DNA from: Erwinia tracheiphila
GTDB lineage: Bacteria > Pseudomonadota > Gammaproteobacteria > Enterobacterales > Enterobacteriaceae
Direction of reading: 5' to 3'
Length of the DNA stretch: 64,000 nucleotides
Assembly (NCBI RefSeq): GCF_021365465.1
Contig: NZ_CP089932.1
Coordinates: forward strand, 434,001-498,000
The notes under the pieces were generated by a model. The model was not told the DNA's origin. It did not search any database and was given only the letters and a program-made list of their open reading frames with translations. Shown piece after piece: positions 10,609 through 53,011 of this stretch. The position numbers were made by a program, and so were the translations under genes. Positions within the stretch are counted from its first letter, which is position 1. Each line of letters opens with the position of its first letter.

Positions 10609-10609
10609 T

Positions 10610-11712: not shown

Positions 11713-11725
11713 TGGAGATGACGAC

Positions 11726-13090: not shown

Positions 13091-13225
13091 TTCAGGGGCG
13101 GCTGAGTCACGATGACCGCCAACACATAGCGAGGGAAGCCTGCTATCGAGACGGCTATCCTGGGAAAATGAGTCGACAGTGTCCAGACGGACTGACCTAC
13201 GTTCTTGATTGATGACACGGAAACT

Positions 13226-14221: not shown

Positions 14222-14272
14222 TTTCCGGAACATGCTCGTCGTTGACGGGTGGCCCAGGAAGGAGAACTGAAC

Positions 14273-15844: not shown

Positions 15845-16791
15845 CCTCGCACGATGACGCCTGCCAGCAGGTGAAAGTTTGGGGTGAGACGCTGTTCGGC
15901 TTTCTTGACGAACATGCGGTGGAGGCCGTCCGGGGAGGACAGTTTATTCTCCGCCATATTCGGCCCGAACTGGCCGCAATTAGCGCGCGTACCGGACGCG
16001 ATCCAGACGACGAAGCGCGAGAGCTTGCGTTCTATCAAGAGATGGCTCTGCTATTCTGGATTGATGACTGTCACGATCGCGGCGTGATGTCACCCGACGA
16101 CTATGCCGTCGTCGAAGGTATCCTCGTCGGCCGGATGCCGGACGCACCTACACCGTCCGTAGGCTGTTCCTTCCTGCGCCATCGTCTGGCACAACTGGCC
16201 AGCCATAAACACGATTATTCGCAGCTGCTGGCTGACACTCAGGCGTACAGCACGGCGTTGCGTAACGGCAAGCGCCTCGCGAGCGACCCAGATCGCTGGT
16301 CCTATTCCGAGCATCTCCGAAACGGCGTCGATTCCATCGGCTACCAAAATGTGTTTGGGTGCCTGTCGCTGCTGTGGGGACTGGATATGCCCCGCTGGCG
16401 GACCGAACCAGCCTTTCAGAACGCCCTGAGCTTTCTCTGCGCCATCGGCCGACTGCAGAACGATCTGCATGGTCTCGCCAATGATCGCACCTTGGGCGAA
16501 GCCGATAATCTGGCGGTACAGCTCGAGCGCCGCTATCCCACGCTGGACGCTGTCGAGTTTCTCCAGACCGAGATCACTGGCTACGAAAGGATGCTGAGGC
16601 CGCTATTGGAGACGGCGAATTTCGATCCTGTCTGGGTACGACTGATGGAAACCATGCTAACGGTTAGTGATCAATATTACGCAACATCGACCCTGCGCTA
16701 CCGGATTGATGACACAGCAACGACCGCCCCCTCATGCGATACGCGCCACGCATCAGGGGCAGTAACAGGGAGTGGGAATGAAACCGAGTGA
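15841..16791 (+). CDS. ks: ent-Kaurene synthase (KS)
   Basis: Class I terpene synthase of 316 residues that ionises ent-copalyl diphosphate and cyclises it to ent-kaurene. The metal-binding aspartates read FWIDDCHDR (D75, D76, D79) and the second metal motif is [14 protein letters not shown]. The single alpha-domain length is that of bacterial KS. The ATGA overlap with CPS at its start and the 14-base overlap with the isomerase gene at its end indicate translational coupling through the whole distal part of the operon. Confidence 0.9.
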
Positions 16792-17827
16792 TACTCTAAG
16801 TCAACGCAAGGACGACCACCTGGATATCGTCCTGAGGCAGAAGACAACCTCGCACACCACCGCAGGCTGGGATTTCGTACAGTTTGAACACTGCGCACTG
16901 CCGGAACTGAATCTCGAGGAGATCGATCTGAGCAGCGCTTTGCTGGGTATTGAATTACGAGCGCCTCTGCTGATCAGCTCCATGACCGGAGGAGCTAAAC
17001 GCGCCGAGGCTATCAACCGCCATCTGGCGGAAGCAGCGCAGTCGTTACGTATCGCCATGGGCGTCGGTTCACAGCGAGTGAGCCTGCGGACCGACCACCG
17101 TCAGGGGCTGACGCGAGAATTGCGCCGTATAGCGCCAGATGTCCCGTTACTCGCCAATATCGGCGCAGCTCAACTGCTGGAATCTGATGGGCTAACGCTC
17201 GCTCGCCGCGCGGTGGAAACGCTGGAAGCCAACGGCCTCATCATCCACCTCAATCCCTTGCAGGAGGCTGTCCAACCGGAGGGAGATCGTGACTGGCGCG
17301 GGGTACTGGGTTGCATTGCACGTGCGGCGGTCCACATCGGCGTCCCGGTGATGGTGAAAGAAGTCGGGACTGGCCTTTCCGCGCAGGTAGCACGAATGCT
17401 GGTCGATGCCGGCGTACAGGCCATCGATATTGCGGGCGCTGGCGGCACCCACTGGGCAGCAGTGGAAGCAGAACGCTCGCGCCACCCCGCCGACTGCGCG
17501 GTGGCCATGGCGTTTGCCGACTGGGGCATCCCTGGCGCCACCGCGTTACAACAGGTTCGGCAGGCGTTGCCGGAGACGACGATCGTCGCTTCCGGGGGCG
17601 TTCACAACGGCGTGAGTGCGGCGAAAGCCATTCGGCTGGGCGCCGATATCGTGGGTCAGGCGGCGGGCGTTCTTCAGGCCGCCACCCGGTCAACCGAGGC
17701 GGTGATCGAACATTTCAACATCCTCATTCGCCAGCTCAGAATCGCCTGTTTCTGCACGGGATCGTGTAACCTCGCGGCGCTGCGACAGGCTCGGCTGTTG
17801 CCTCCTCCCGGCATTATCCCCGTGTAA
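16778..17827 (+). CDS. idi: Type 2 isopentenyl diphosphate isomerase
   Basis: FMN-dependent IPP/DMAPP isomerase of 349 residues. Signatures include RKDDHLDI at the N-terminus, [27 protein letters not shown] and the FMN-binding AGAGGTHW. It is carried only by some gibberellin operons and would balance IPP and DMAPP for the GGPP synthase. ATG 16778 is preferred over GTG 16772 because AGGGAG lies about 6 bases upstream. It is the last gene of the operon; the next 37 bases lead straight into an IS6 remnant, and no terminator hairpin was found between. Confidence 0.88.
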
Positions 17828-20270: not shown

Positions 20271-23200
20271 ATGCCCATCAGTACAGTTGCAATATCCTCT
20301 GCAGTACCACGTCAGAGCGACGTCAAATATAACGTGAATGACGGCAGCGTGGAGTCAGCTCCCCTGTTGAGTCGTTTAAACTTCGTCAGCAACAGCACGA
20401 ACGACCTGCAGGATAAAGAGCTGAAGGACAAGCTTGAAGAAGGCAAAAGACTGTATCAGGCTGCCCAAAGCCTTGGACATTCCGGCAACAATGATCCCGT
20501 TATGCCCGCCTTTAAAGGCGGGTGGCTTAAGAAATGCGGGATATATACCCTGCTTGGCGGGGCGGTGATAGGTGGCGTGTTCGGTATCGGAATGTTGGCA
20601 GGATATAAATTCGGTCGGGCCGCGAACGTTAATAACGGTGCCCTGGGAAACCGCCCGTCGCCGGACAGCACACCTCACCCTGCCATTAAAGTAAATCAGA
20701 CGGAACAGGACACCATTCCTGATGACCGGCCTCTTCGCTTGCACATACCGCTTCCTTCTTATGACGAAACGGAACATGCCCATTTCCGTCGCCATCTGCC
20801 GGATGAAAACGTAACGGGCGGCCCGACCGGTCCCCGACAGATGAAGAGCAGAAAAAGGTCCCATAAAGCAAAAATGGCGTTCCCCACTGCCACAAAACGT
20901 GCAAACAGCGAGGTTACAAAACTGCTCCGCGCTCAGGGTCTGCTGGACAGGGGAAGGGTCAGCAAAGAACGCATGTTGTCCGAAGTGGCCGGCTATCTGT
21001 ACGGCGGTGAGACAGGTATTGCGGGTAACAGGGAGCAGCTCAGGGATCTGGCCAGAAAGATGCTTGCTGCAAACAGACTGTATGGTGGACAGAATGACGA
21101 AGAACTTTCCTTCGCACGGGCAGAGGCCGTGGTTCGTCAGTGGCTGTTCAGCAACGTTCTGGGAAAGACACCCACAGAATATATTCTGGACAGGATGGAA
21201 GCAGATCCTTATCCGTCTTATTACACGGTCAGCAGTATCCTCCACCTGTTAGATTTACAGGAATTGTTTAAAAACCGTCAGATAAGTTATACAAAAATGC
21301 CCGAAAAACAGAGGGGAGTCTTTAATGCAATGTGGTATTCCGCCCTGTGGGCAGATATGCCCTTTCTTAAATTCACTGAAGATAAATCTTACGGCAATGA
21401 AAAATCAGTCAGCGCACTGGAACTCGGGAGCGGTGAATTTGCCAACCTCTTTACCGGCTCCCTTTTTCTGAAAAACCTGTCAGATGAATAATTTACCGCT
21501 GAAGAAGCGATGACGGTCGGTGAGTCAATGTGGGAGTTAGCCGTTCGCGAAGGGGTGACGGAAGATAATATTGTTTATTATGGCTCACCCGCCCTGTTTT
21601 TCACTGCCTCTGAGTCACCCGGAAACAGTAAACTGGCCGGGGATAATGTTGCTGCGGCTGTTAACAGCTATGTCCAGTTCAGAGAAACAGTTACTGAGCT
21701 ACGGCAGGAGATAAAAAAGAAATACGATGACTATCTTTCAGCAACAAAAAAATGGCGCAGTAAGGGCAAGCTGGCCGATAAGATTGTAGCAGAGTGCCAT
21801 GTCCTTTTTCCGGCCTTACCTACCATAGGCGATGCTATCCTCAGCCCGGAGCCTCGGCGGGAAAGAGAAGATAAAAAGGCAAAAGAGTCTTATATGCTGG
21901 GCATGTCAAAACCCTGCAGGAGAGCACCGGACAGTCTGAGTGATGAATACAATACCCTGACGACTGACGTGGCTGAAAAATTTAAGGATATCGACAGATA
22001 TGTGATCCTCTCAGCATTAAGCACGTTGCACGAAGATGATCGGGCATTTATTTCTTCAGCCGATACTATCCTGCACAGGGTCCTTTTTGAGATGAAAACA
22101 AACAGGTACAGCGGCAGCAGATTGGCACTGCTGAACATGAACACCAATATATCTCTGAAAAACAAGGATTTTTTTGCCGCGCGTCGGGGAGAAACAGAAC
22201 AGATATATGCGCTGAAAAACTCCAACAAGTCGGATGGAAGCTACGAAATATACCGGGTCGATCATCATATAAATCGTTACACCTATTATGACCTTTTTGA
22301 CAGGAATGATTTGAAACTTCTCAACGCCATCGACGGCAGAATTGTGAATCTTACGCCGGGTTCCCGGGAAAAAATAACCTGTAAAATAGAGGTCGCCGAT
22401 CAGATTGCAGCGGGTGGTAATATGACACAACTGATTGATCATCTGAGCGGTGTCCACCGGAATAAACTTTATAATTCCTTATATGAGTCAGGAAATGACC
22501 TAGCGGAAATTGAAAAAATCTGGCATACGGTTAAACATTTCATTCCATTTTATGACTGTATTGACGGCAGCATCAACCATGATGCTGCCCTGGCGGTGCC
22601 TTCGTGCCTGACAGATATCATTGCTTTCCTGCCAGTGATCGGAGAAGCCGTCAGTCTGAGTGCCAGGTTTGGGATGGTGGCGGCAAGAGAGGCTCTCTTT
22701 GCAGGCCGCACAGGCGTTGTTGCAGTGGGGAAAAATGCGCTCCGGGGCGCCAGCGCCAGTATGCCAACGACCGCCGAGCTGGCCTCGTTAGGGAACGGCG
22801 CTCTGAAAGCTGCAGACCCCGGTTTCCAGTTGCTGGCAGCAGCAGCGCGACCTGGCAGGGACTTTGCGAAAAGAGTTGCTGCCCTGCTGTCCGGTAGTAA
22901 AAAAACGCCCGTACTGGCGCAAAAGATGGCCAGTGAGGGCTGGCTTGCCCGTCTCCCACAGGCGACATCAGGCGAGTTGATTAAGGGGAAACTGCCGGGC
23001 ACGGATCTGGCGGTGCCGATAAAAGCCGTCGACAGGCTGCATGATGGCAGGAATGTTTACGTGCGGGTCAATCCCGAAACCGGTATGCCGGGAGTGCAAA
23101 AATTTATCTGTAAGAAAAATGGAGTTCTTGAACCCCTGCACGCCAAGGTGGAAAAAATCAGGAACATCAGAGAGGTATGGACAGAAAGTAACCGGGCAGA

Positions 23201-23370
23201 CAATGATATTACTTATACAGGCGGCCGGGCCAAGAGAGGTGCCGGGGCCAGCAAACTGTGTTCTGCCCGTTCTCCTTCACCGGATATAGAACTTTCTAGT
23301 GTTATTATGAAAAAGAGATCTCGCGATGAATGTAAAAAAATATTACAACACTGGGAAGATTCAAAAATTC
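20271..23370 (+). pseudogene. Large toxin/effector-like protein gene, in-frame stop and IS1-truncated
   Basis: Two open segments in one frame, 406 codons and then about 629, are separated only by TAA at 21489-21491, so this was one protein of more than 1030 residues. The N-terminus is Ser/Thr/Asn-rich and lacks a Sec signal. A glycine-rich hydrophobic segment lies at about residues 90-115, and a second hydrophobic region (CLTDIIAFLPVIGEAVSLSA) follows KHFIPFYDC in the later part. The architecture is like large secreted toxins or type III effectors, but I cannot name a family and saw no hrp box. The IS1 at 23371 cuts the C-terminus and supplies the terminating TGA. Confidence 0.6.
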
Positions 23371-23385
23371 GGTCGTGACGCAGAT

Positions 23386-26824: not shown

Positions 26825-28510
26825 ACGTATAGGAAATTGAAACTATTTCTGCGCTGGAATGAACTGACTAAAATTCAACCATCATTAGATTCGTATGATG
26901 CAGGGTCTGTCTGCTCCCCGCAACCTGGTGAAGATTTGTGCTTTTCCAGGTTGTTTTTCAGGCTGCCAGCGTGCGCGAAGCGGATCTTCCCTGCATCAGT
27001 CCGGGATGTACCTCATCAGGCTTATCTCCCGCGCGTGGATTTTCAGCCCTGCACATTCAGACCCGTAACCGCACGGTGGTACGCCATTCGCCCGCCGCAC
27101 AGCACACATTCGAACGGGTCTCGCCGCAGGAACTGCTTACTCATCTGCGCGTAGCACACCTTTGCCACCGGCTCCGGCTTTTCCATCCCCGGCGCGCTGC
27201 AGACCACCGGCAGCTTTTCTCCGCACACCCTGTTGGCCAGAAAGCCAAAATAACGCACCATCCGGAAGAACTTCTCCGGGATGTGCTGTTTCAGCCGTGC
27301 CACTATGTCACGCCGCGTCAGCGTTTCCGTCGCCTGCTCACTGGTGTTGTGGTCATGGTGGCGGAAGCTCAGCGTGGCTCCGCCCGCATAGTGCGCCAGC
27401 CGGGAACCCGCTATCGGTGGCTTTTTCAGGTAGCGGCCCAGGTATTTCACGGTGTTTTTTTCCACCCGCCGTCTTTTTTGACATGTACACATGCCAGTAA
27501 TCGCTCCCGGCGGTCAGTATCAGGCTGCGCCACTGTGATTAGGTGCTGATATGTGGCAACGAAGGGGGGATTGCGACGCCTTCGGACCAGATGCTCAGGA
27601 GTAACTGGCGGATATTCCACATCCAGCGGGCGCGCATGGCATCCTTACGGAAGCTGATTTTTTTCCACTTTCTGTGCTCGTTGATACCGCCGCAGGTGAC
27701 GGAGACGTGCACATGGGGATGCCAGTTGAGTCGCCGGCCGTACGTATGGATGGCGTAGAAGATAGCGATATCCCGCCCGCGTTTTCCGGCAGCAAACAGC
27801 AGGTTATCGACGGCCAGCCGGCAGAGGTCGTTGAGCAGCCCGCGGTTAACCTCAAACAGGGGCCACAGCGAATCGGGGAGGGTGAAGACGAGATGTATCC
27901 AGTCGCAGTCCGGCAGACGGTTAAGCCGGGCGGCAATCCACAGGACGGTGGCCTTTTTCCCGCAGGAGGGGCAGGCCCGGCTGTGGCAGGCGTTGGTGAT
28001 GTATCTGACATGCCGGCACCCGGGATTATCGCAGCCATATTCCTTCACGCCGTTGATGCGGGTGCCGCAGGCGAGCATTTTGGTGACGGCCCCGACCTCG
28101 ATATCACACAGCCCGCCGGCATCCAGGAAGGAGGTCCAGCACGGGTTGGCCGTAAAGAGTTTTTTAAGTGGTCGCGGGGTAAAACCGGACAGCACGGGAC
28201 AGATTGAGCTTCAGTTGTCTGCAGACGGGCAAGCGCGGCGGTGTCGCCCCGGCGCTCCAGTATAGACCTGGCGACCATAACAGGCGGCGGGTCCATGGGT
28301 TTGAGCATCTTCATCCAGTCCCATTCACGCTGAGAGAGCTTATCGGCGGCAACGGAGAGCAGGATGGTATCGATGCTTTTACGGGTCATCATGGGGAAGG
28401 CTCTGAGCAAAATATGTAGTCAGATCATACATATTCAAATCACTGTATGACAACTCAGAGTCCGGCAGATGGCGCAGTTTTCAGTTTGCGGCCGGCCGAC
28501 TGCCCTGTTC
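26825..28510 (-). mobile_element. IS91-family element, complete in length but mutated
   Basis: Runs from the ori end at 26825 (preceded by GTTC 26821-26824) to the ter end closing in GTTC at 28507-28510, 1686 bp. It contains the transposase pseudogene and the small upstream ORF (from 28392), whose normal stop has been lost. The ter end matches the one at 1195. Confidence 0.75.
27003..28195 (-). pseudogene. IS91-family transposase with stop and frameshifts
   Basis: The first 218 codons (start GTG 28193-28195) are open and include the CHSRACPSCGK cluster and the HUH motif HPHVHVSVT. A TAA at 27539 ends them where the copy at 1-879 reads on, and an extra A in a run (27457-27463) shifts the next section. 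The C-terminal segment 27043-27492 then loses a G, so that GLNVQG is followed by a stop instead of LKTHAREIS. It shares the stop and A-run lesion with the 24590 copy, so the two are duplicates of an already dead ancestor. Confidence 0.8.
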
Positions 28511-28540
28511 ATAAAAAAGCCGCCGTCGCGGCTTTTTTAT
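28511..28540. terminator. Bidirectional rho-independent terminator
   Basis: Perfect 13-bp arms ATAAAAAAGCCGC and GCGGCTTTTTTAT around CGTC, with A/T runs on both sides. It directly follows the IS91 end. Confidence 0.75.
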
Positions 28541-28924
28541 GACTTAGCCTGACGGGGTGCCGGTGAGCGGTCTGACGCCGGGTTGTGTGGCGTTCCAGCC
28601 CAAGAACACGCTCCTTATCCCAGCGTCGTATAGCGTTTCCCTGAGTTTCATTCCTTAGTCCAATTTAACGGCCACCTCGACTGCCCGCAGGGCATTAGGC
28701 TCTCCCCCGGATATTCAGCCAGGCTAATCAACATCCGCGCCGATACCCGGCAACGTCGGCCTTTCTCAAGCCGGAGTTTGGGGAGCAATGGAACTCAAGT
28801 CTCAGAGATGCCACCTATTAGGCTTAATTCCATTGGGTTCGCTCAACAGCGCCCATCAACATAAAGCCTGTCAGGCAGGCGATACCTACGGTAGCATCCC
28901 GTAGCAAGGAGGCCTTTGTAATTT
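28541..28924 (+). promoter_or_regulatory. Leader of the PLP enzyme gene
   Basis: About 380 bases without a gene. It should hold the promoter of the downstream enzyme gene. Several short inverted repeats are visible (for example GCCTGTCAGGCAGGC at 28866-28880), but no riboswitch class was recognised. It ends with AAGGAGG at 28907-28913, a strong ribosome-binding site 11 bases before the ATG. Confidence 0.4.
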
Positions 28925-30280
28925 ATGCAGACGACAACTAACAGCTCCGGTTCCAAGTCACTGGCACACTTGTACCAGAACATTCAAAACGCCTACCCGG
29001 CGCTTTCACGCAACCTCGTGAAAACTCCCATAGTCGAGTTTCCTTGGCTTAGCTCTAACAACCGAAGGGTATGGGCGAAGCTAGAGTGCCTGCAGCGTAC
29101 TGGTTCTTTCAAATTGCGCGGTGCCTATAATGCGCTGCACTTGCTTTCCCCCGGTGCTTCTGTCTATACGGCCTCAGCAGGCAATCATGGGCTGGCAATT
29201 GCCACGTTGGCGCGTGAACTCAGCTTGCAGGCAAATATATTCGTACCGTTGACCGCTTCAGAAATCAAGATTCGTCGGCTGCGGGCAGTCGGGGCGCGAG
29301 TCGTCCAGGGAGGTGGCGATGTCTCTGAGGCCTATGTCACGGCCCATCAGGAGGCCCAGGAAAATGGCGGGTACTACATCTCACCGTTTGACCACCCTGA
29401 CGTGGTCGCCGGCCAAGGGTCACTGGCACTGGAAATCGCGGAACAGGATGATCGGCGGTTTGATCACATCCTGTTGCCATTTGGCGGTGGCGGCCTGCTT
29501 ACCGGCTTCGGCTGCGCGGCCGCCAAGCTATGGCCGGATACAAGGTTGCACGGAGTACATCCGGCTACTTTCGGTCGTAACCTGGATAAAGGCTTCGATG
29601 GTCAGCAGATGCTTAAAAGCGTCATGCCCACTCTTGCTGATGGCCTTGCGATCGAGCACGAACCAGACAACTGGCTGTGGCCTCTGATACAGACATTGGC
29701 ACCCACTTTTCACGCAGTGCCTGAAGAACGCATTAAGACCAGCATGATGACGCTCTTACATCAGGAAAGCATTCTGTCCGAGGGAGCAGGAGCCATTGCT
29801 TTGGCGCCTTTACTGTTCGACGAGAGCCCTAACCTGGAAGGCGATATTCTGGTCCTTGTCAGTGGTGGCAATATTTCCGTTCCGCTGCTGGCGAAAGCCA
29901 TGACTACCGTCATCGAAGACCCGAGACTGCGCAAGATAAACGGCCTGAGAGCAAGTACACTCGGCATTGAGCTGTCGGCGTCCGCATCAGGCAAGACATC
30001 TCAGACCGTCGAAAAAACCAGCACTTACAGTGCGGCACCAACCAGCGAGGCCACGCTTCTGTCGATGTGGCTGCAACTGGTAGATCGTGTGGAACAAGCC
30101 TTGAACGAGTTGCAAGCAACCCTACAGCAACACTTGTCGTTTACCCTGCGCGAGTCGTTACCCGTAGACCCCATGATTGAAAGCTTCATGGGCGATGTGC
30201 TGGACAGCACCCGTAAAATGATCAGCAGTTGCCGCAGCCCAGGACTGGACGGGCGTCAGGTCGCTCAACGATATCGCTTG
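28925..30280 (+). pseudogene. Two-domain PLP enzyme, part 1: threonine-dehydratase-like domain
   Basis: Fold-type II PLP enzyme domain of the threonine dehydratase/synthase family. The Schiff-base lysine is in TGSFKLRGAYNAL (about residue 65), the substrate loop SAGNHG is near residue 90 and the phosphate-binding glycines are FGGGGLLTG near residue 195. From about residue 340 follows a segment of unknown kind, largely helical in look. The frame is cut after codon 452 by the IS91-type element at 30281. Removing bases 30281-32187 joins it in frame to 32188-33417 and gives an 861-residue protein, so the two halves are one gene. Confidence 0.75.
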
Positions 30281-30431
30281 ATGGTTAGGAAACTGAATCA
30301 TCGTTTTAAAAATTTCCTGACCATGAGCAGCAGTGTCTGTAATGCAGTAATGATGTGCCATCGGGAACGTTATGGTCATAAAATGGCATTTGCGGCGCGT
30401 TTTTAACCTGAAAGCTGTTTTTCAGACGCAC

Positions 30432-31646
30432 TTATCCCGCAGTCTGTGCCAGAAGCCATCGTTTCCGGTCGATGTTATGCAGTCTTTCTGCCACCAACTC
30501 CGACGCGTGCCTCCCGGCCTGCGCACTGCTGAAGCGCAGTCGGTTGCCGCACAGAATGCATTTGTACGGATCCGTGCGCAGAAATTCTTTCATCAGCGCG
30601 GCGAAGCCGGGCTTCTCCGGTTTTTTCCGCGCTTCCATCTCCAGGGCTTCATACACCTTCGGCAGCAGGCTACCCCGTTTACGGTTTGATAAAAAACCGT
30701 AATAACGCACCATCTTAAAATGCTTCGCCGGGATATGGCTGATATAACGTCCGATCATATCTTCCTGCGTCAGCGTCTGCTGCCGGTACTGCTGCGTACG
30801 GTGGTCGTAATAGTGGTGCACCACCGCGCCGCCGCTGTAGTGCCTCAGCTTCGCCGCCGACACGGGGGGCCGTTTCAGGTACCGGCCCAGATATTTGACG
30901 CTCCGCCAGGCCCCCCGGGTCTTCTTCGCGAAGTGGACCTTCCAGCGGCGCCCGTACTGCGCCTGCAGATAGCGCAGCCACTGTTTTTTGTCGTGGATAT
31001 GCCCCAGCCCCGGCAGCCTGCCGGGGTTAATCAGGTCATAGCTGTGGCGCAGCAGCCGGATGACGGCTCCGCGCCAGATTTCCTCCACGGCATGCTTTTT
31101 AAAGAAGAGGTCGCGCCATACGCCGTGTTTAATATCAAGCCCGCCGCGGGTGACGGAGAGATGAATGTGGGGATGCTGGTTGAGCTGGCGACCGTAGGTG
31201 TGCAGGGCGCAGAAGATACCGACTTCCACACCCTGTTTTCTGGCCCAGCGGAGCATGGCGCGGGTGGCTGCGCGGAACAGGGCATTGAGCAGAGGCCAGT
31301 TATTGTTGAAAAAGGGCCACAGCAGATGGGGCATGGTGAAGGTGATATGCTGCCAGTCGCAGTCGGGCAGAATTTGCTGTTGCTCTGTAATCCACTGCTC
31401 CGTGGCCTTATGTCCGCAGGAGCTGCAGCCTTTTGATTTACAGGTCTGGCAGAAGAAGCGGGTGTGGGTGCAGTCCGGGGAGGCGCAGCAGTATCGCTTC
31501 ACCCCCATGGCAGCAGTGCCGCAGGCGAGCATGCGCTCGACGCAGAGTACGGTCCAGGGGCTGAGGGTGTCCCCGTGTTTATCCATATACCGGTTCCAGG
31601 CGTCATCAGTGGTGAACAGCAGTTTTGCCGGGCGCGGGATATACAT
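30432..31646 (-). CDS. IS91-type Y2 transposase (copy A)
   Basis: Intact 404-residue rolling-circle transposase. The N-terminus (YIPRPAKLLFTTDDAWNRYM) is followed by a zinc-binding cluster CQTCKSKGCSSCGHKA near residue 70, the HUH motif HPHIHLSVT near residue 160, then SVKYLGRYLKRPP and the tyrosines in KMVRYYGFLSNRKR. A second zinc-like CILCGNRL lies near the C-terminus. It should nick the ori end and drive one-ended, replicative transposition into GAAC/CAAG. Confidence 0.88.
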   Translation of the reverse strand: MYIPRPAKLLFTTDDAWNRYMDKHGDTLSPWTVLCVERMLACGTAAMGVKRYCCASPDCTHTRFFCQTCKSKGCSSCGHKATEQWITEQQQILPDCDWQHITFTMPHLLWPFFNNNWPLLNALFRAATRAMLRWARKQGVEVGIFCALHTYGRQLNQHPHIHLSVTRGGLDIKHGVWRDLFFKKHAVEEIWRGAVIRLLRHSYDLINPGRLPGLGHIHDKKQWLRYLQAQYGRRWKVHFAKKTRGAWRSVKYLGRYLKRPPVSAAKLRHYSGGAVVHHYYDHRTQQYRQQTLTQEDMIGRYISHIPAKHFKMVRYYGFLSNRKRGSLLPKVYEALEMEARKKPEKPGFAALMKEFLRTDPYKCILCGNRLRFSSAQAGRHASELVAERLHNIDRKRWLLAQTAG

Positions 31647-31654
31647 GCGGCGGA

Positions 31655-32101
31655 TTATCGCTCTGCAGTGGCACCGGTATTATAGTGCCAGTCGTCACAG
31701 TCATCGGCCCAGTTGTCGGTGTGTTTATCCCAGGGAGCGAAGGTCACCGGCAGCATGCCGGATTCTGTGGCGATAATAAACACATCGGCTGGCATGGACT
31801 CAAGGACGACATCGCCGTCGGGTGAGTCAGGCGGCTCAAAGCCGCGGATGATGCAGACGAGAGGCGGGTCGAAGTGTGTATCGAGGAAAAACTGTGGCCC
31901 CAGGTGGACACAGTGACGAATGGCATCCTGCGGAGTGTCGTAAAAAAACTCGTCGGGGTCGTCATAATCGCTCCGGGGCGGAATGGACACCAGAAAACGC
32001 TTAGGATATCCGGGTATAGCGCGTCGGGACGAGGGCGTGGGTTTACGCTTTCTGGGGGCTTTGCTACGGGCAATGTGAATGATTTCCTGAGAAATTAACA
32101 T
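31655..32101 (-). CDS. Accessory ORF of the IS91-type element (copy A)
   Basis: A 148-residue acidic protein encoded between the ter end and the transposase, 8 bases upstream of the latter. No known family was recognised. Features are a basic N-terminus (KAPRKRKPTPSSRR), a DDPDEFFYDTP segment and an Asp/Trp-rich C-terminus (WADDCDDWHYNTG). It is identical in copy B but absent from the 1452-bp relative at 56265, so it is carried as cargo or as a helper specific to this subtype. Confidence 0.65.
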   Translation of the reverse strand: MLISQEIIHIARSKAPRKRKPTPSSRRAIPGYPKRFLVSIPPRSDYDDPDEFFYDTPQDAIRHCVHLGPQFFLDTHFDPPLVCIIRGFEPPDSPDGDVVLESMPADVFIIATESGMLPVTFAPWDKHTDNWADDCDDWHYNTGATAER

Positions 32102-32187
32102 ACCGCAGAGTATAAAGCTGTGAGCCGGTCATGAACACCCTCGGAACGGCAGAGCCGTGACGCTCGCCCTGTAAGGGCGCTATGTTC

Positions 32188-33417
32188 ATTCAGCAGTTCG
32201 GACTCGCCCTCTCAGCCTTGAATTGGTGCAGTGCAAGTACCGATCAAAGCAAAGAAATCATGTTTTTCGATCCTGCGGACCTGCAAACCAGCTCTGTGAA
32301 CTATGAACGTTATGGTTCGGTGGTCCTGCGCGAACTTGAACTGAACTTGGTGCGTGCGATCGGCTTCAGCGGTGGCGCACGCACAGCGCTGCTAACCTCC
32401 AGCGGCCAAGCCGCCTACTCGACGCTGGAAAGCTTTCTTTTACGCGAAGTCTTTCCAAAACACCCGGAAGCAGCCCGCGTGGCAAGGGTCCCTTATCTAT
32501 ACTTTGAAGCGCTGGAACAGCTGGAAGCACTTCCGCAGGTTTCGATGACGATCGCGGAGGACTGGAGTGTAAAGGCGTTGATCGAATGCGTGGAGCGCAC
32601 TGACAGCCATGTTGTGTTCGCGGACCCCATGGCTAATATCGGTGAATTGCCCTGCTTTGATTTTCAAGCGCTGGCCAACGACTTGCGGACCCGTGACTGG
32701 CGAAACCGTTGGCTGGTTATTGACGGCACAATGATCTCCGGTGGCTTCAACCCTTTCACGCTGTTCGATGCGCCAAATCATCCACAAATCCTGTACTTCG
32801 AAAGCGGCAGCAAATACCTGCAGTTGGGGCTGGATCTGCAAATGCTCGGCGTCATTGTTTGCAGCGAGCAACATGCGCCTGCCCTCGCCCGGCACCGACG
32901 CAACCTGGGCACTGGCTTGTACCAGAATCAGGTTGCGCGCTTTCCGTTGTTCGACAGAGAGCAACTTCTGCAACGCATGCAGCGCTTGACGCGCAACGCC
33001 GAACATCTGGCGGCTTCACTGGACGCCATCGAGCACCCACGCAGTCAATTGCGGGTCGCCTATCCGCGCGACTGGCGCAAGCGCCGGTGGAACCATGGTG
33101 GAGGTGTCGTTGCCACCACTTTCAGTGAGCCGGGTTTGAACAATCGGCACTGCCTAGAGGGCTTGATCGAACTCATCATCAACAGTTGCCGAAGCGCAGG
33201 CGTATCGATCACCAAAGGCGTGAGCTTCGGTTTTGGCGTTACCCGTATTTCAGCTGCTGCGGCAATAGCAGAGTCAACAGATCCCTTCTTGCGTTTCTCT
33301 ATGGGCGAAGAAACCAGCGAACAGATGGAACAGCTGGTTGCCTGCGTTACCCAGTCCATTTACCTGGATGGTGCGCGGCTCGCTCTGCGAGTTGAGTATC
33401 AAACAGGGGAATACTGA
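32188..33417 (+). pseudogene. Two-domain PLP enzyme, part 2: Cys/Met-metabolism-like domain
   Basis: Fold-type I PLP domain related to cystathionine gamma-synthase/lyases, about 410 codons. ALLTSSGQAAYSTLESFLL is the cofactor phosphate region, WLVIDGTMISGG holds the ring-binding Asp, and ESGSKYLQLGLDLQ contains the presumed Schiff-base lysine. It begins immediately after the IS91-type element. A spurious ATG at 32182 comes from the element itself. Joined to 28925-30280 it gives one protein with two different PLP folds. Which reaction it catalyses cannot be read from sequence; a beta/gamma-replacement on an unusual amino acid is plausible. Confidence 0.75.
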
Positions 33418-33463
33418 AATGCGGGCACGACTCGCCTACGAACCGAGAAAGTAGCATAACCGC

Positions 33464-33488
33464 CGTGCGGGGTTCTAAACCCCGCACG
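33464..33488 (+). terminator. Hairpin after the PLP enzyme gene
   Basis: Perfect 11-bp arms (CGTGCGGGGTT / AACCCCGCACG) with a 3-base loop, 46 bases after the stop. There is no T-run downstream, so termination may be weak or Rho-assisted. Confidence 0.5.
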
Positions 33489-33655
33489 TTCGGTGAGTAG
33501 CAGATTGTCGGGTTTCATTTTTCAGGCACCCTTTACCTTCCCCTTCTTAAAAAATCAACGATCAAATGGCGGACACCTGCGTTCATTTGATCGTTGCATC
33601 GACAAAGCCGATCCTCTTAGAGTTGCCCGACCAGAAACGGCAACGGCGAGTGAAT

Positions 33656-35110
33656 ATGATGCGGCAACTGTTTACCAGATTACTGACGGGCAGAACAGCA
33701 AAGGACCTGGCGCTATCCGTGTCTTCACCCCCTGCTGGTTATTATTACCCGCAAAGCGCCGCCGGGCTTCTTTCCACGGAGGAACGTGTCCGGACGCTGG
33801 TTCGTATCTGGGAAAACACCTCGTTGCCGAAGGAAACCTACCAGGCGCTGTGCCTGGCTCCGTTGCAGGCATGTGCTGAGGTCATGCAGCAGTTTCCGTA
33901 CAGCAACGCAGGCAGGTTTGCGTATCCGGGCGGGATGCTGGACGCAACGCTGAAAACCCTGCTTTACGCGGTGATGAAGGCCCGGAGTTATATGCTGCCA
34001 CCGGGCGTTCCGCCTGAAGACCAGGCGCGGGACTCCGCCGCGTGGAATACCGTTGTGTTCTACGCGGCTCTGTTTTCGCACCTGTCTGCATTAGGCTCGC
34101 TGAAAGTCGAACTGGACGATGGCTCTGTCTGGATACCGTTTGACGGTCAACCCGCTTCGGCCTACCGGTTCCGGTTTGTTCCGCCAGGCATGGCCGGGGC
34201 GGATATCTGTCTGGGGGCGCTGTTTGCCTCGAGGGTCCTGCCAGGGGATGTTTTTTCCTGGCTGAAGCAACACCCGCCTGCTCTGGATATGCTCATGCTC
34301 TGGATTGGTGGGCAGCGGGCGCAATGTGGTGTCATCAATGCGATAGTCAGTGACGCCATCCACGAAGTAACTGGGTCGGCTCCGGTACAGCCGGTAGTAC
34401 TCGTTTCAGGGGGATCGTCAGTTGTGGGAGCAACACTGCCGGTTTCGTCCGCGCTGTTACCTGTGGATTCAGCGCCGCAAACTCCGCCTGCTATGTCAGC
34501 GGGTGCCGCTCCCCTGGTGCTTGCCTCGGCGCTTGATCCTTCTGCCGGAAGCGAAAGTGTGCCGGATGTGGCTGCCACGGAGGCTCCGTTACCGGAACCG
34601 GAAATCCACATGGATGAGGACGCTGGAAATACTGACTGGGAGGATGTTGCGGCTTTCCTGGGGTATGAGGAAGCCGCTCAGGGATCGGCCGTTAAGAACA
34701 CCGGGTTGGCTGCACCCGAATCTTCACCCGACACCGCCAGTTTGGGGGAAAGATTCTGGTTGTGGCTGCTGAAGTCGGTAGAAGACGGTTCGCTGGCCGT
34801 CAACACGCCGGAAGCCAGAGTCCATCTGGTTGCCGGGAGTGTCTTTATCCAGGCCCCGGCGATATTTCATCAGTTTGCTGCGGAGAATGAGGATGTTGAT
34901 GATATCGATTCACTGCGTCAGGACGTTGAAGCGTTACCCCATATCAGACGGAGTGAGGGGAAGCTGTACCGATGCCGTTTGTATGAAGCAGAGAGCGCCG
35001 GGGGGGACTTTACCAACCTTTCGGGCTATTTCATCGACGCCCGCCGTGTCTACGGGCAGAATCCTGTTCCGGCAGACAATCCGTTGATGGTGGTGCCAAA
35101 ACGCCGGTGA
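33656..35110 (+). CDS. TraI_2-domain (MobH-relaxase-like) protein
   Basis: Resembles the TraI_2 proteins of integrative conjugative elements: LLSTEERVRTLVRIWENTSL, YPGGMLDATLKTLLYAVMKA, MLPPGVPPEDQARDSAAWNT and VVFYAALFSHLSALGSLKVE, then WIPFDG near residue 165. Family members have an HD-type metal site where this protein reads AGRFAYPGG and ALFSHLSALG, so the nuclease residues seem lost. A Pro/Ala/Ser-rich linker at about residues 250-340 leads to a C-terminal TraI_2_C-like domain (PEARVHLVAGSVFIQAP). ATG 33656 fits the family N-terminus better than ATG 33566. Confidence 0.65.
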   Translation: MMRQLFTRLLTGRTAKDLALSVSSPPAGYYYPQSAAGLLSTEERVRTLVRIWENTSLPKETYQALCLAPLQACAEVMQQFPYSNAGRFAYPGGMLDATLKTLLYAVMKARSYMLPPGVPPEDQARDSAAWNTVVFYAALFSHLSALGSLKVELDDGSVWIPFDGQPASAYRFRFVPPGMAGADICLGALFASRVLPGDVFSWLKQHPPALDMLMLWIGGQRAQCGVINAIVSDAIHEVTGSAPVQPVVLVSGGSSVVGATLPVSSALLPVDSAPQTPPAMSAGAAPLVLASALDPSAGSESVPDVAATEAPLPEPEIHMDEDAGNTDWEDVAAFLGYEEAAQGSAVKNTGLAAPESSPDTASLGERFWLWLLKSVEDGSLAVNTPEARVHLVAGSVFIQAPAIFHQFAAENEDVDDIDSLRQDVEALPHIRRSEGKLYRCRLYEAESAGGDFTNLSGYFIDARRVYGQNPVPADNPLMVVPKRR

Positions 35111-35187
35111 CCGGCCCGCCATGCTGGTTAATACTGGCGTTTTGGTTTACATTAGCTGCATGATCAAGAGGCTGGCAGGTGTACAGC

Positions 35188-35430
35188 ATGGCTGAAGATG
35201 AGGGCGCTGTTCGTGGTACGAAAGTTGGTAGACCTAGGAAATATGAAACGAAGTCTGACAAACAGCGAGCCTATATAACCCAGAAATTGCAGACCAAGGT
35301 ACAAACAAAAGTTCTTTTGTCCCCGGATGGTAGAGATACCCTGAACAAGCTTTGTAAGCTGCGTGGGGTTACTCAAGGGGAGTTAGTTACGGAACTCATA
35401 AAAAAATACGCAAGTGAAGTTCTTGACTAA
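35188..35430 (+). CDS. copB: CopB/RepB-type copy-number repressor of a RepFII replicon
   Basis: An 80-residue basic protein. It has KVGRPRKYETKSDKQRAYI, then VLLSPDGRDTLNKLCKLRGV and TQGELVTELIKKY, the ribbon-helix-helix pattern of IncFII CopB. CopB represses the repA promoter and keeps copy number low. ATG 35188 (MAEDEG) is used instead of the in-frame GTG 35179. The order copB - antisense region - leader peptide - repA downstream is that of IncFII plasmids. Confidence 0.75.
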   Translation: MAEDEGAVRGTKVGRPRKYETKSDKQRAYITQKLQTKVQTKVLLSPDGRDTLNKLCKLRGVTQGELVTELIKKYASEVLD

Positions 35431-35465
35431 ATTGACCTGTCATAGGTTTGTTGCTAAAGTGCGCT

Positions 35466-35590
35466 AAGAATTTTTGGTCGGCACGCCGGAAGGTGCCAGG
35501 AACGGGGTGGGAACCCCAAAAAAAGTAAACCCCGATATCTGTTCATCAACTTGGCGGGAGAAGACAGAAAATCGGGGCTAACAAATGTAC
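35466..35590 (-). ncRNA. copA: CopA-like antisense RNA region
   Basis: ACCCCGATATCTGTTCATCA ACTTGGCGGGA ... AATCGGGGCT (35531-35578) forms the main stem with a TTGGCG loop, matching the CopA/CopT stem-loop II of IncFII plasmids in position and loop motif. A second hairpin, GGAACGGGGTGGGAACCCC, lies at 35499-35517. The antisense transcript would run on the minus strand. Exact ends are not determined. Confidence 0.6.
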
Positions 35591-35627
35591 TGCGGAAGGT
35601 TTTCGTTCTGTGGTGGAGTATAAATCC

Positions 35628-35654
35628 ATGTACAAAATCATGCAACCCCTGTGA
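35628..35654 (+). CDS. Candidate RepA leader peptide (Tap-like)
   Basis: ATG at 35628 encodes MYKIMQPL and stops at TGA 35652-35654, overlapping the GTG start of repA (CTGTGACC). In IncFII replicons translation of such a leader opens the repA start, and CopA blocks it. The sequence itself is not like the IncFII Tap I remember, so the call rests on position. Confidence 0.4.
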   Translation: MYKIMQPL

Positions 35655-36213
35655 CCGCCATAAGACCGGGACGGGGTGTCAGAAACCCGAATCCGGTATT
35701 CACGCCGAGGTAGGGGAAAAAGACGCTGCCGTTCTGCCGTAAGCTGATGGCGAAAGCCGAAGGCTTCACGTCCCGTTTTGATTTTTCCATGCACGTTGCG
35801 TTTGCCCGTTCTCTGGGGGCGCGTCATCGTATGCCTCCTTTGCTGCGCCGCCGCGCCATCGATGCGCTGCTCCAGGGGCTGTGTTTCCACTACGATCCGC
35901 TGGCTAATCGCGTTCAGCGTTCCATTACCAATCTGGCCATCGAATGCGGACTGGCCACGGAGTCACAGAACGGCAATCTCTCCATCACCCGCGCCACGCG
36001 GGCGCTGAAGTTTATGGCAGAACTGGGCCTGATTACCTACCAGACCGAATATGATCCGCAGATAGGCTGTAACATTCCGACCGATATTACCTTTACCCCT
36101 GCCCTGTTCTCCGCACTCGACGTTTCTGACGTGGCCGTGGCGGCTGCCCGCCGCAGCCGTGTGGAGTGGGAAAACCAGCAGCGTGAAAAACAACGTCTCC
36201 CCCGGCTGGATAT
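35651..36213 (+). pseudogene. repA: RepFII-type replication initiator RepA, nonsense and truncated
   Basis: The frame from GTG 35651 reads VTAIRPGRGVRNPNPVFTPR, then TAG at 35711-35713 where a Glu codon is expected, then [20 protein letters not shown]. The following part is typical RepA ([51 protein letters not shown]). The Tn3-derived element at 36214 replaces the C-terminal third after RLDMG. An internal ATG at 35747 could still make a fragment, but replication activity should be lost. Confidence 0.8.
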
Positions 36214-36251
36214 GGGGGCAGTTTGGATATCGAAAATTATTGTACGTTAAG

Positions 36252-46360: not shown

Positions 46361-48124
46361 TCAGAAACCGACTGCCGCACCAGCAGGGCGGCGAATATCG
46401 TTGGCACCGTAAAGGTAGCCAGGCCTTAATTTGTCCGATACCGCGGAATCATTGCCAGAATCCGCCGCATTTTTACCTTTATTGCGTTCAGGCGCGATCA
46501 TGATAAGTTCGGTTGCTCCCCACGGCGTCTGCTCCGTCATTTTATAGCCACGCTCACGCAGCAGTTTCAAGGTATCAAACGACAGTCCACGCTGCTCATA
46601 ATAGACTTCATCCGGTAGCCATTGATGATGAACCCTTGGCGCGTCCACTGCTTCCTGAGGAAGCATACCGTGATCGATAATATTCAGTGCTACCTGCAGC
46701 GAGGCGGTAATGATACGAGAACCACCCGGCGAACCCAGCACTAAAAACCCCTTTTTATCACGCGTGACAATGGTTGGAGCCATTGAAGAGAGCGGACGTT
46801 TACCCGGCGCGATAGTGTTGTTTGCTCCCTGCACCAGGCCAAACATATTTTTCTCGCCAATTTTAGTGGTGAAATCGTCCATTTCGTCGTTAAGGAAGAA
46901 ACCGGTATCGGGTGCCATGACCACTGCACCAAATCGACCATTAACGGTATAGGTAGTGGAAACCGCATTCCCCTGTTGGTCAACAACGGAATAGTGAGTG
47001 GTTTCCGGGCGTTCCCCCATAACCTGTTTGGTCTCAGGCAATTTTGATGGGGTAGCATCTGTGGCATGAATGCCACAGCGCATTTCATCGGCGTAGGCCT
47101 GACTCAGCAGCTTATCCAGCGGGTTGTGAATAAATTCAGGGTCGCCCAACGAATTATTACGATCGTAATAGGCAATACGCATGGCTTCCGTCATAACATG
47201 AACAGAATCAGCAGAGTTGAAGCCCAGCGCATGCATATCATAACCTGATAGTATATTCACCATCTCACAGAGGACGACACCCCCGGAGCTGGGGGGCGGA
47301 GATGAGATAAACTCATAGCCCCGATACTGGCAGCGTAATGGTGCACTTTCAGTTACGTGATAGTGAGCAAAGTCTGCAGCGGTGATAATACCGCCTTCTT
47401 TTGCGGCAGCCGCTTCGACACGCTGGGGAATGGGTTTCTTATAAAAGTAGTCTGTTCCGAACTGAGCAATATGGCTCAACGTTTTAGCCAGCTCAGGTTG
47501 TTTCAGGTTATCACCTGGCTGAAGTGGCGTTCCATCTGGGCGCAAGAACCACCGGGCAGCCTGGGGATCATTTTTAAACCGGCTAACGGTAGTATCCAGA
47601 ATATCGGTGTCGGCCCGCGTCAGAATAAAGCCGTTACGGGCAAGTTTTATCGCCGGTGCCATAACCTGTTGGCGACTGAGCTTACCATAATGACTCTGGG
47701 CATAATCCAGACCCATTACCGTACCGGGAACGGCAACGGCAGAGTAGCCATGCAGGCTGGCATTTGAGCGCACGTTACCATTTTGATCGAGATACATATC
47801 GGCGCGCGCGGCGGCCGGAGCGGTTTCGCGGAAGTTGATAAAGATATCTTTGCCGCCTGCGAGATGGATCAGCATAAAGCCTCCCCCACCAATATTACCG
47901 CAGCAGGGATTGACTACGGCCTGAGCATAGCCCACCGCAACGGCTGCATCGATGGCGTTACCGCCCTGTTTCATGATATCGACGCCTACCTGGGAAGCAA
48001 TAGCCTGCGAACTGACCACCATCCCATGATGGGCCTCAACTGCCGGAGCAGATGCAGCCTGGACCTGTGCACTGGCAATCACCCCGCATGTCAACAGAAA
48101 ACCGAAAAAAGTGTTGCGTGACAT
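46361..48124 (-). CDS. ggt: Gamma-glutamyltransferase (periplasmic)
   Basis: A 587-residue Ntn-hydrolase precursor with signal peptide (MSRNTFFGFLLTCGVIASAQ, VQA). The autocatalytic cut is before Thr in ERPETTHYSVVD. CGNIGGGGFMLIHLAGG and the substrate loop SSMAPTIV, SPGGSRIIT match GGT. It hydrolyses or transpeptidates glutathione and other gamma-glutamyl compounds in the periplasm. It is the last gene of a minus-strand unit, 69 bases after the phytochelatin-synthase-like gene. ATG 48124 is chosen because the signal peptide starts there. Confidence 0.9.
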   Translation of the reverse strand: MSRNTFFGFLLTCGVIASAQVQAASAPAVEAHHGMVVSSQAIASQVGVDIMKQGGNAIDAAVAVGYAQAVVNPCCGNIGGGGFMLIHLAGGKDIFINFRETAPAAARADMYLDQNGNVRSNASLHGYSAVAVPGTVMGLDYAQSHYGKLSRQQVMAPAIKLARNGFILTRADTDILDTTVSRFKNDPQAARWFLRPDGTPLQPGDNLKQPELAKTLSHIAQFGTDYFYKKPIPQRVEAAAAKEGGIITAADFAHYHVTESAPLRCQYRGYEFISSPPPSSGGVVLCEMVNILSGYDMHALGFNSADSVHVMTEAMRIAYYDRNNSLGDPEFIHNPLDKLLSQAYADEMRCGIHATDATPSKLPETKQVMGERPETTHYSVVDQQGNAVSTTYTVNGRFGAVVMAPDTGFFLNDEMDDFTTKIGEKNMFGLVQGANNTIAPGKRPLSSMAPTIVTRDKKGFLVLGSPGGSRIITASLQVALNIIDHGMLPQEAVDAPRVHHQWLPDEVYYEQRGLSFDTLKLLRERGYKMTEQTPWGATELIMIAPERNKGKNAADSGNDSAVSDKLRPGYLYGANDIRRPAGAAVGF

Positions 48125-48193
48125 TGAATAATTTCTCTGTGTTGTACAAATGAGGCGAGTCCTTTCGCCGTTATAACTTGATAACAATAACCT

Positions 48194-49766: not shown

Positions 49767-50493
49767 GTATGACTCCGTGAATTAAAATATAAACGACATA
49801 TCATCTTTCTTCTCCTGGTCGTCGGCAAACACTCGGGTGAACACCGGAAGATAACCCGATAAGCACGACCTGGGGGAAGATGAATGGCGGTAAGTGGTCA
49901 AATTGGTTACAGTGGCACCCAAAAAAATCCTGAAAAAGAGTATGTTGTGCATGTCATCATGAGTTAATTGATAAAATATAGCATCAACTTTCGCGAAGCC
50001 TGTAACGAAAATTCAGCTTAATTTTCGACTTTAAAAAAGTATACCACTAAGTATTTATGTTAATTCAATAAAAGAATAAGGATTGACATCTGCATATCTA
50101 ATAAAAATACGTTGAAATTGGATGAAAATTCTTCGGCATTTCGAATAAATAAAATGACTATTTTTTCTCCAAAAAATCCTTAAAAGATACCTGCTATACA
50201 AGACACGCACGTGTGAGAGAATAATCAGGAAAATCCATAACCAACACATCTTAACCTATAAAAAAAATGATACTTTAAACTAAGATAAGTCTGATAATAA
50301 TGCCATGCTCGAACCAGTTATCATTTGTTATCCACATATCGAACCGGGAATATTTGATAATATGATCATGTTATGATGCTTGTCTTTCTACAATGTGAAC
50401 ACTAGTTAAAGTATGGTTTTTGGCCTAAAGTTAATGATTTTCATGGGTTTTTTATAATTTCCATATTTATATTATTCATTAATAGTGTTCGAA
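49767..50493. promoter_or_regulatory. AT-rich region with divergent promoters
   Basis: Gene-free, AT-rich sequence between the minus-strand thiol unit and the plus-strand amidinotransferase gene. Both promoters should be here; individual boxes were not assigned. No repeat or RNA was recognised. Confidence 0.4.
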
Positions 50494-52860: not shown

Positions 52861-53011
52861 ATGGTTAGGAAACTGAATCATCGTTTTAAAAATTTCCTGA
52901 CCATGAGCAGCAGTGTCTGTAATGCAGTAATGATGTGCCATCGGGAACGTTATGGTCATAAAATGGCATTTGCGGCGCGTTTTTAACCTGAAAGCTGTTT
53001 TTCAGACGCAC

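What the first reader, a model, noticed from the sequence alone, without database searches (positions are those of the whole stretch)
28925..33417. A fused fold-II/fold-I PLP enzyme gene split cleanly by an IS91-type insertion
Seen: 28925-30280 (452 codons, threonine-dehydratase-like) and 32188-33417 (410 codons, cystathionine-synthase-like) join exactly in frame when the 1907-bp element between CTTG and ATTCAG is removed (CGC TTG / ATT CAG). The predicted ancestor is one 861-residue protein with two different PLP folds and an unknown linker of about 110 residues. Known: IS91 inserts next to CAAG/GAAC without duplicating the target. Inferred: an enzyme that makes and then modifies an unusual amino acid.
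Basis: partly seen in the sequence, partly recalled or inferred. Interest (0 to 1): 0.75.

Follow-up and report, generated by a model that had tools for sequence, protein, structure and literature searches.

The report
Plant-pathogen enzyme gene split by transposon
A rare two-in-one vitamin-B6-dependent enzyme gene that is still whole in two other plant-pathogenic bacteria has been cut in two by a jumping gene in this bacterium; in some carriers it has the promoter mark of the type III (virulence) gene set, and it may belong to an undescribed small-molecule pathway.

Summary
Two pieces (28925-30280; 32188 to about 33366) are halves of one gene interrupted by a 1907-bp IS91-family element (30281-32187). 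At least 34 full-length copies of the element lie in this genome; 30 of 30 copies read at their ends sit after GTTC or CTTG. Uninterrupted relatives are single ORFs on Pseudomonas amygdali pv. aesculi plasmids (852 aa; window pieces 95-97% identical) and in Paracidovorax oryzae (858 aa, 62%); Xanthomonas bromi has a copy with an internal stop at a contig end. The window pieces, kept apart, tile these relatives with one residue unmatched at the seam. N-terminal half: fold-II, threonine-dehydratase-like. C-terminal half: a far-diverged, probably fold-I (Cys/Met) domain. Both are under purifying selection. New here: (a) an overlapping GNAT-like gene follows in the three relatives read, and was not found in this genome; (b) an hrp-box (HrpL promoter) precedes the window copy and the three P. 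syringae-group copies read, not the P. oryzae copy; (c) the 3' end is replaced in the window. Best reading: a broken, horizontally acquired operon of the HrpL (type III secretion) regulon, probably making an unknown amino-acid-derived compound. The product is not shown; injected effector or detoxification enzyme remain possible.

The parts
28543..28585 (+). 43-bp repeat found on many P. syringae-group plasmids; left edge of the block shared with P. amygdali plasmids
   Evidence: 2 mismatches to L002 6292-6334; 67 plasmid records match the P. amygdali upstream query, 66 of them Pseudomonas; of the 40 listed, 35 match only its first 43-49 bases
28790..28817 (+). hrp-box-like HrpL promoter, GGAAC-N16-CCACNNA
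   Evidence: motif form from PMC4149516 (passage)
28925..30280 (+). piece 1: fold-II (threonine-dehydratase-like) domain, residues 31-314, plus about 120 residues of linker; its ORF runs on into the element to 30406
   Evidence: PF00291 224.7 bits; tiles P0003 1-452
30281..32187 (-). IS91-family element interrupting the gene
   Evidence: ends shared by 30 of 30 copies; at least 34 matches cover the whole query
30432..31646 (-). IS91 transposase
   Evidence: NF033538 321.9 bits against cut-off 125; PF04986, PF14319
31655..32101 (-). second ORF of the element, no family match
32188..33366 (+). piece 2: diverged, probably fold-I (Cys/Met metabolism type) domain, homologous part; an ORF with an ATG at 32182 inside the element's end covers it
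   Evidence: tiles P0003 from residue 454; PF01053 reached by the P. amygdali copy only
33367..33417 (+). unrelated 3' end of the ORF; the relatives' last residues and the GNAT-like gene that follows them are not here

Best explanation
A recently broken, horizontally acquired operon. Shown: one gene encoding a fold-II PLP domain, a linker and a second, probably fold-I, PLP domain was interrupted by an IS91-family element; in the three relatives read it overlaps a GNAT-like gene. Shown as sequence only: an hrp-box stands upstream of the window copy and of three P. syringae-group copies. Inferred: the operon belonged to the HrpL regulon, and its three active sites made a small amino-acid-derived compound inside the bacterium. 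In the inferred scheme the GNAT acylates a hydroxy amino acid (leaving group) or N-acylates the product (self-protection), the fold-I domain does gamma- or beta-replacement or elimination, and the fold-II domain does alpha,beta-elimination, beta-replacement or racemisation, one domain's product feeding the other. In the window genome the operon is broken twice: the insertion, and the loss of the 3' end with the GNAT gene.
For: Single intact ORFs in P. amygdali (852 aa; two of its plasmid records read, L002 and L004) and P. oryzae (858 aa); the X. bromi copy is continuous across the seam. PF00291 for the fold-II half; PF01053 at 32.9 and 36.0 bits over the cut-off 27 for the P. amygdali second half. 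Aligned to the two strongest PF01053 proteins of the same genome (MetB and MetC by recall), Y-x-R, Asp of D-x-T, the Lys of S-x-S-K-Y and the Arg of L-R-x-S-x-G fall in register (the roles of these residues are recalled). dN/dS between P. amygdali and P. oryzae 0.16 (fold II) and 0.13 (second domain), with dS near 2. GNAT-like gene overlapping the PLP gene in L002, L005, L006 and on the same 5 of 72,556 plasmid records. hrp-box in window, L002, L003, L004; in the six sequences scanned (154,820 bases, both strands) the only other site fronts a CesT chaperone/AvrPphF effector operon; 8 of 20,000 shuffles of the 400 bp upstream of the L002 gene had a site. HrpL regulons contain non-effector, secondary-metabolism-type operons in mosaic distribution (PMC3879358 section 22).
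Against: No expression, activity or metabolite data. No hrp-box upstream of the P. oryzae copy; the X. bromi upstream region lies beyond its contig end. The P. oryzae copy and the window piece match no Pfam family in the second half, and hhalign to MetB/MetC gave a probability of only 14 (local) or 21 (global). Both structure models are poor (mean pLDDT 46.0 and 49.6), so the PLP sites were not seen in three dimensions. The GNAT label is weak: PF13302 23.1 and 14.5 bits against 25.4. No exporter or further pathway gene was recognised by eye in the L002 feature table or the L005 and L006 ORF lists (no family search of those neighbours). The serine-rich N-terminus of the P. syringae and window copies would also suit an injected protein. 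Piece 1 keeps its promoter, start and whole fold-II domain, so part of the function could survive in the window genome.
Confidence: 0.55

Rival explanations
1. The fusion enzyme (and GNAT) detoxifies or uses plant-derived amino acids: elimination reactions by both PLP domains, acetylation by the GNAT. HrpL control would time this to life inside the plant.
For: The nearest named families of the fold-II half are ammonia-lyases; Foldseek of the poor second-domain model ranks methionine gamma-lyase CalE6 first; no exporter recognised by eye nearby.
Against: Two different PLP folds kept in one chain at 62% identity suggest channelling rather than two separate degradations; rarity (5 of 72,556 plasmids; 2 loci in the genome-contig scan for close relatives) is unlike housekeeping catabolism.
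Confidence: 0.22
2. The protein is an injected type III effector that manipulates PLP or amino-acid metabolism in the plant cell.
For: hrp-box; first 50 residues 14% serine in the window and P. amygdali copies; no acidic residue in the first 12 of the window copy; scattered presence in four genera of plant pathogens.
Against: The fold-II family match starts at residue 31, leaving little room for a separate secretion region; the P. amygdali copy has an acidic residue within the first 12; neither copy has an aliphatic residue at positions 3-4; the P. oryzae N-terminus shows none of the three traits (traits from passages of PMC9963460 and PMC3009519; the positions 3-4 and the serine threshold are recalled). 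The overlapping neighbour is GNAT-like, not a chaperone.
Confidence: 0.15
3. Two separate genes that chance and the insertion make look like one.
For: The two halves belong to different folds, and the window ORFs are separate.
Against: Continuous ORFs across the seam in P. amygdali, P. oryzae and X. bromi.
Confidence: 0.01

Closest known systems
RtxA (rhizobitoxine biosynthesis; PMC3222319 passages)
   Same: One long polypeptide, N-terminal PLP-type aminotransferase region and a C-terminal region like O-acetylhomoserine sulfhydrylase (a Cys/Met-type PLP enzyme), in plant-associated bacteria.
   Different: Here the N-terminal domain is fold-II, threonine-dehydratase-like. No desaturase like RtxC was recognised by eye beside it. 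RtxA was not fetched or aligned here.
Catabolic threonine dehydratase (TdcB, 2gn0) and serine racemase
   Same: Fold-II domain with matching S-F-K, S-A-G-N-H, G-G-G-G and S-G-G-N stretches.
   Different: Below every NCBIfam cut-off among the 25 of 42 matched families shown (best 213 against 371 bits); fused to a second PLP domain.
Cystathionine gamma-synthase family
   Same: PF01053 match of the P. amygdali copy; catalytic positions in register.
   Different: Only 16-19% identical to the two strongest PF01053 proteins of the same genome; the usual G-H-S-D after the Lys is changed; own (V/M)SFGF..(S/T)R stretch shared with distant kin.
HrpL-regulated non-effector operons (hsvABC, iaaL-matE, avrD; PMC3879358 section 22)
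   Same: hrp-box, enzyme genes, mosaic distribution in P. syringae and Erwinia.
   Different: 'pyridoxal' and 'PLP' occur 0 times in that paper's main text; no such fusion in the section read.
IS91 family
   Same: Transposase equivalog, GAAC/CAAG target, no target duplication.
   Different: Nothing notable.

Membership tests
IS91 family element | IS91-type transposase | tested here: met
   NF033538 321.9 bits, cut-off 125
IS91 family element | Insertion next to GAAC or CAAG | tested here: met
   Left neighbour GTTC 25 of 30, CTTG 5 of 30, the reverse complements
IS91 family element | No target-site duplication | tested here: met
   Beyond the shared right end 0 of 30 repeat the left tetranucleotide (read by eye). 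The shared end itself reads GTTC, also in the 5 copies that sit after CTTG, so it belongs to the element.
Fold-II PLP (PALP) | PF00291 over its cut-off, Lys and phosphate-loop stretches | tested here: met
   224.7 bits window, 229.8 P. amygdali, 201 P. oryzae, cut-off 35; alignment to 2gn0
Threonine/serine dehydratase (equivalog) | NCBIfam equivalog cut-off | tested here: not met
   best 213.2 against 371 bits
Cys/Met metabolism PLP enzymes (fold I) | PF01053 over its cut-off | tested here: inconclusive
   P. amygdali copy yes (32.9 and 36.0 against 27); window piece and P. oryzae copy no match
Cys/Met metabolism PLP enzymes (fold I) | PLP Lys, Asp and carboxylate Arg in register | tested here: met
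   alignment with two PF01053 proteins of the genome; residue roles recalled; the catalytic Tyr position is ambiguous
Cys/Met metabolism PLP enzymes (fold I) | Fold | tested here: inconclusive
   Foldseek on a pLDDT 49.6 model: the 50 of 1,713 hits listed are fold-I PLP enzymes by title and recall (SphA entries not known to me), but TM only 0.20-0.36
HrpL regulon member | hrp-box upstream | tested here: met
   window, L002, L003, L004; not P. oryzae; X. bromi not readable
HrpL regulon member | HrpL-dependent transcription | not testable with these tools
   no expression data
Type III effector | N-terminal secretion traits (Ser-rich, no acidic residue in first 12, aliphatic at 3/4) | tested here: inconclusive
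   window 2 of 3, P. amygdali 1 of 3, P. oryzae 0 of 3
RtxA-type enzyme | N-terminal aminotransferase domain | tested here: not met
   only PF00291 above cut-off in the N-terminal half

The most novel reading that the evidence does not exclude
An undescribed enzyme family in which a fold-II and a fold-I PLP enzyme are fused and work in series, with a GNAT partner, as a minimal two-gene, three-active-site pathway for an unknown amino-acid-type compound that moves between unrelated plant pathogens, in part under type III secretion control.
Probability: 0.45. Interest if true: 0.75.

Novelty: new variant of a known kind. Interest (0 to 1): 0.55.

Why it matters
A known two-PLP-domain fusion of plant-associated bacteria, RtxA, makes an ethylene inhibitor. 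Another fusion of a different build, with an HrpL-box in front of some copies, found in P. syringae-group, Xanthomonas, Paracidovorax and Erwinia, points to a small and testable, perhaps undescribed, small-molecule trait of plant pathogens. The window genome also shows one IS91 burst breaking such traits: a second copy interrupts what looks like an hsv-type operon 22 kb away.

Tried and rejected
Structure prediction of the intact P. oryzae protein (858 aa, 4 rows) and of its last 439 residues (3 rows) gave mean pLDDT 46.0 and 49.6: alignments too shallow. Only the second model was searched; its result is used as weak support for fold type I only. The linker's helices come from the first, poor model.

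Wider homologue hunts with the second domain. (single protein): 147 relatives, only the window genome matched; 369 genomes of the class, only the window genome; 349 of the P. oryzae family, only P. oryzae; 247 of the X. bromi family, only X. bromi; 398 of the phylum at E up to 0.1, 30 match: the window genome, four genomes of one genus at E 2.7e-8 to 6.5e-6, and 25 at E 0.0045 or worse, taken as chance without reading them; 399 of the P. oryzae order, 28 match: P. oryzae, one at 9.6e-4, 26 weaker, taken as chance without reading them. These sets overlap and are samples of larger groups. The scan of genome contigs used the single window piece and reaches close relatives only: 33 stretches, 2 loci. 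In 50,697 phage records the P. oryzae protein met only threonine-dehydratase-like matches over at most 39% of its length among the 5 of 23 rows listed.

A PIP box upstream of the P. oryzae gene: best site has 2 mismatches; not taken as real. In the window a PIP-like site with 1 mismatch lies at 28818, not followed up. Papers: one search gave 0 papers; (titles and starts of abstracts) did not show this fusion; PMC2856684 and PMC5132102 were searched for terms only. This is not proof that it is unpublished.
Full report
WHAT IS THERE. The window is from a plant-pathogenic Erwinia, most likely E. tracheiphila: two E. tracheiphila plasmids share stretches at 98% identity with about 29% of 28200-36000, and the ORFs at 6.7-17.8 kb look like the gibberellin operon known from that species (recalled; paper listing). 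Piece 1 (28925-30280, 452 codons) and piece 2 (32188-33417, 409 codons plus stop) are open as described.

THE INSERT. The element is 30281-32187. Searching the genome with it gave 46 matches, a lower bound because only 40 of 129 first-look candidates were scored: 34 over the whole query, 6 partial ones at the same identity, 6 weaker. In the 30 copies fetched both ends are the same; the left neighbour is GTTC in 25 and CTTG in 5, and none repeats that tetranucleotide beyond the right end. With the transposase equivalog (321.9 bits against 125) this is a textbook IS91-family insertion.

ONE GENE. Five plasmid records hold the gene: four of P. amygdali from horse chestnut and pPsy0479a. In the two P. 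amygdali pv. aesculi records read, it is uninterrupted (L002 6642-9200 and L004, same protein accession, 852 aa, annotated 'pyridoxal-phosphate dependent enzyme'). Paracidovorax oryzae carries it uninterrupted at 62% identity (L006 8621-11197, 858 aa, TTG start). Xanthomonas bromi has it at a contig end with an internal stop near its start; the 731-aa frame after the stop is continuous over the seam. pPsy0479a has it in several frames. Aligned as separate rows, the window pieces tile the intact proteins, leaving one residue unmatched at the seam. The last 16 or so window residues are unrelated, and 33350-33720 matches no plasmid record. The ancestor was therefore about 852 aa, and the 3' end was replaced by a separate event.

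WHAT IT ENCODES. The N-terminal half is a fold-II enzyme (PF00291, 224.7 bits) closest to threonine/serine dehydratases and serine racemase but under every NCBIfam cut-off shown. The C-terminal half is a far-diverged, probably fold-I domain: PF01053 over its cut-off in the P. amygdali copy (32.9 in the whole protein, 36.0 in the domain alone), no match in the P. oryzae or window copies; one weak NCBIfam match of the window piece (E 3.5e-4). It is 16-19% identical to the two strongest PF01053 proteins of the same genome (MetB and MetC by recall), with the PLP lysine, the Asp, the Y-x-R pair and the C-terminal Arg in register. hhalign to those two gave a probability of only 14 locally (E 0.0019) and 21 globally. 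Foldseek with a poor model listed fold-I PLP enzymes, methionine gamma-lyase CalE6 first, at TM about 0.3. I take fold type I as likely and membership in the Cys/Met family as probable but not settled. The linker (about residues 335-453) evolves faster (dN/dS 0.32 against 0.16 and 0.13 for the two domains, P. amygdali against P. oryzae, dS 1.6-2.1). Purifying selection on both domains means both matter.

PARTNER AND PROMOTER. L002, L005 and L006 carry a GNAT-like gene that overlaps the stop of the PLP gene by one to four bases. It is annotated 'GNAT family protein' in L002 and L004; PF13302 stays below its cut-off (23.1 and 14.5 bits against 25.4); the X. bromi and P. oryzae proteins are 80% and 45% identical to the P. 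amygdali one. It is on the same 5 of 72,556 plasmid records as the PLP gene. No match was found in the window genome (the tool notes that an empty answer without a positive control is weak). Upstream, GGAACT-N16-CCACTTA (P. amygdali) and GGAACT-N15-CCACCTA (window) end 118 and 107 bases before the start codon. Against the strict GGAACC form this is one mismatch; against the form accepted in HrpL ChIP work, GGAAC-N16-17-CCACNNA (PMC4149516, passage), it is exact. In 154,820 bases scanned on both strands the only other site fronts a CesT chaperone/AvrPphF effector operon, a fitting positive control; 8 of 20,000 dinucleotide shuffles of the L002 upstream 400 bp carried a site. L002 and L004 are not independent, and all copies with the box share descent. 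The P. oryzae copy has no such site; the X. bromi upstream region is off its contig.

ORIGIN. DNA identity to the P. amygdali plasmids is 96.3% over piece 1, dS 0.12, little for hosts of different orders. The shared block begins at a 43-bp repeat (window 28543) that is spread over P. syringae-group plasmids: 67 records match the upstream query, 66 of them Pseudomonas; of the 40 listed, 5 hold the PLP gene and 35 match the repeat only. The gene thus probably came to Erwinia from a P. syringae-type plasmid. X. bromi is dS 0.24 from P. amygdali; the P. oryzae copy is old (dS near saturation, GC as its surroundings).

HOW IT MOST LIKELY WORKS. Two unlike PLP sites held in one chain, with a coupled acyltransferase, fit a short biosynthetic route: activation or protection by acylation, replacement or elimination at the gamma or beta carbon by the fold-I domain, and elimination, replacement or racemisation by the fold-II domain. 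A similar layout is RtxA (PMC3222319 passages), whose N-terminal domain is, however, an aminotransferase. HrpL regulons hold non-effector enzyme operons in mosaic distribution (PMC3879358 section 22). The steps from 'hrp-box' to 'HrpL-regulated' and from 'three active sites' to 'a new small molecule' are inference. The rivals are detoxification/catabolism (0.22) and an injected effector (0.15). In the window genome piece 1 still has its promoter, start and whole fold-II domain, so 'broken' is safer than 'dead'.

DISTANT KIN. A profile search of 398 genomes of the phylum found a relative of the second domain in four genomes of one unnamed genus (E 2.7e-8 to 6.5e-6). In the three read over a longer stretch the domain is fused to a protein kinase and an FGE-sulfatase domain, each beside a similar 578-591-aa ORF (by eye); the one scanned is carboxynorspermidine-decarboxylase-like (nspC 243.1 bits, under its cut-off of 409). 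The fourth has a 763-aa ORF on a 3250-bp contig that ends in the kinase part (by eye). hhalign: probability 97.2, E 4.4e-11, 251 columns, in the PLP domain and not the linker. So the domain belongs to a wider, unnamed group used in different fusions.

VERDICT. The break itself is ordinary for a genome known for IS proliferation and gene decay (PMC6168856 passages). What is of interest is the intact enzyme in the relatives.

Noticed in passing
50485-51608 and 51742-52860, second IS copy 52861-54767: Amidinotransferase-like gene in two ORFs (identity recalled; no Pfam match) and an ATP-grasp-like gene (PF13535 25.8 bits, just under its cut-off of 27) cut by a second copy of the same IS91 element; resembles the HrpL-regulated hsvABC/PSPTO_0873-0875 operon described in PMC3879358. 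Described only.
   Followed up: partly
L067 1687-5004, L068 3732-7019, L069 3188-6475, L051 39-2330: Unnamed genus: a distant relative of the second PLP domain fused to a protein kinase and (in the first three) an FGE-sulfatase domain, the first three beside a decarboxylase-like ORF.
   Followed up: partly
28543-28585: 43-bp repeat spread over P. syringae-group plasmids, marking the left edge of the transferred block.
   Followed up: partly
L005 1-2437: X. bromi copy has an in-frame stop near its start and lies at a contig end: possibly also decayed.
   Followed up: no
L003 6643-10004: pPsy0479a copy is split into several overlapping annotated frames: decayed or sequencing error.
   Followed up: no
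20271-23378: Two adjacent ORFs (406 and 622 aa) without Pfam or NCBIfam match.
   Followed up: no
6733-17827: Cytochrome P450, dehydrogenase, prenyltransferase and cyclase-like ORFs that look like the gibberellin operon (recalled, no family search).
   Followed up: no
33566-36250: ICE/plasmid relaxase (TraI_2) ORF and a shortened IncFII RepA in a chromosome-sized contig: plasmid remnants next to the broken gene.
   Followed up: no
46361-48187: Gamma-glutamyltranspeptidase (PF01019, 561 bits).
   Followed up: no
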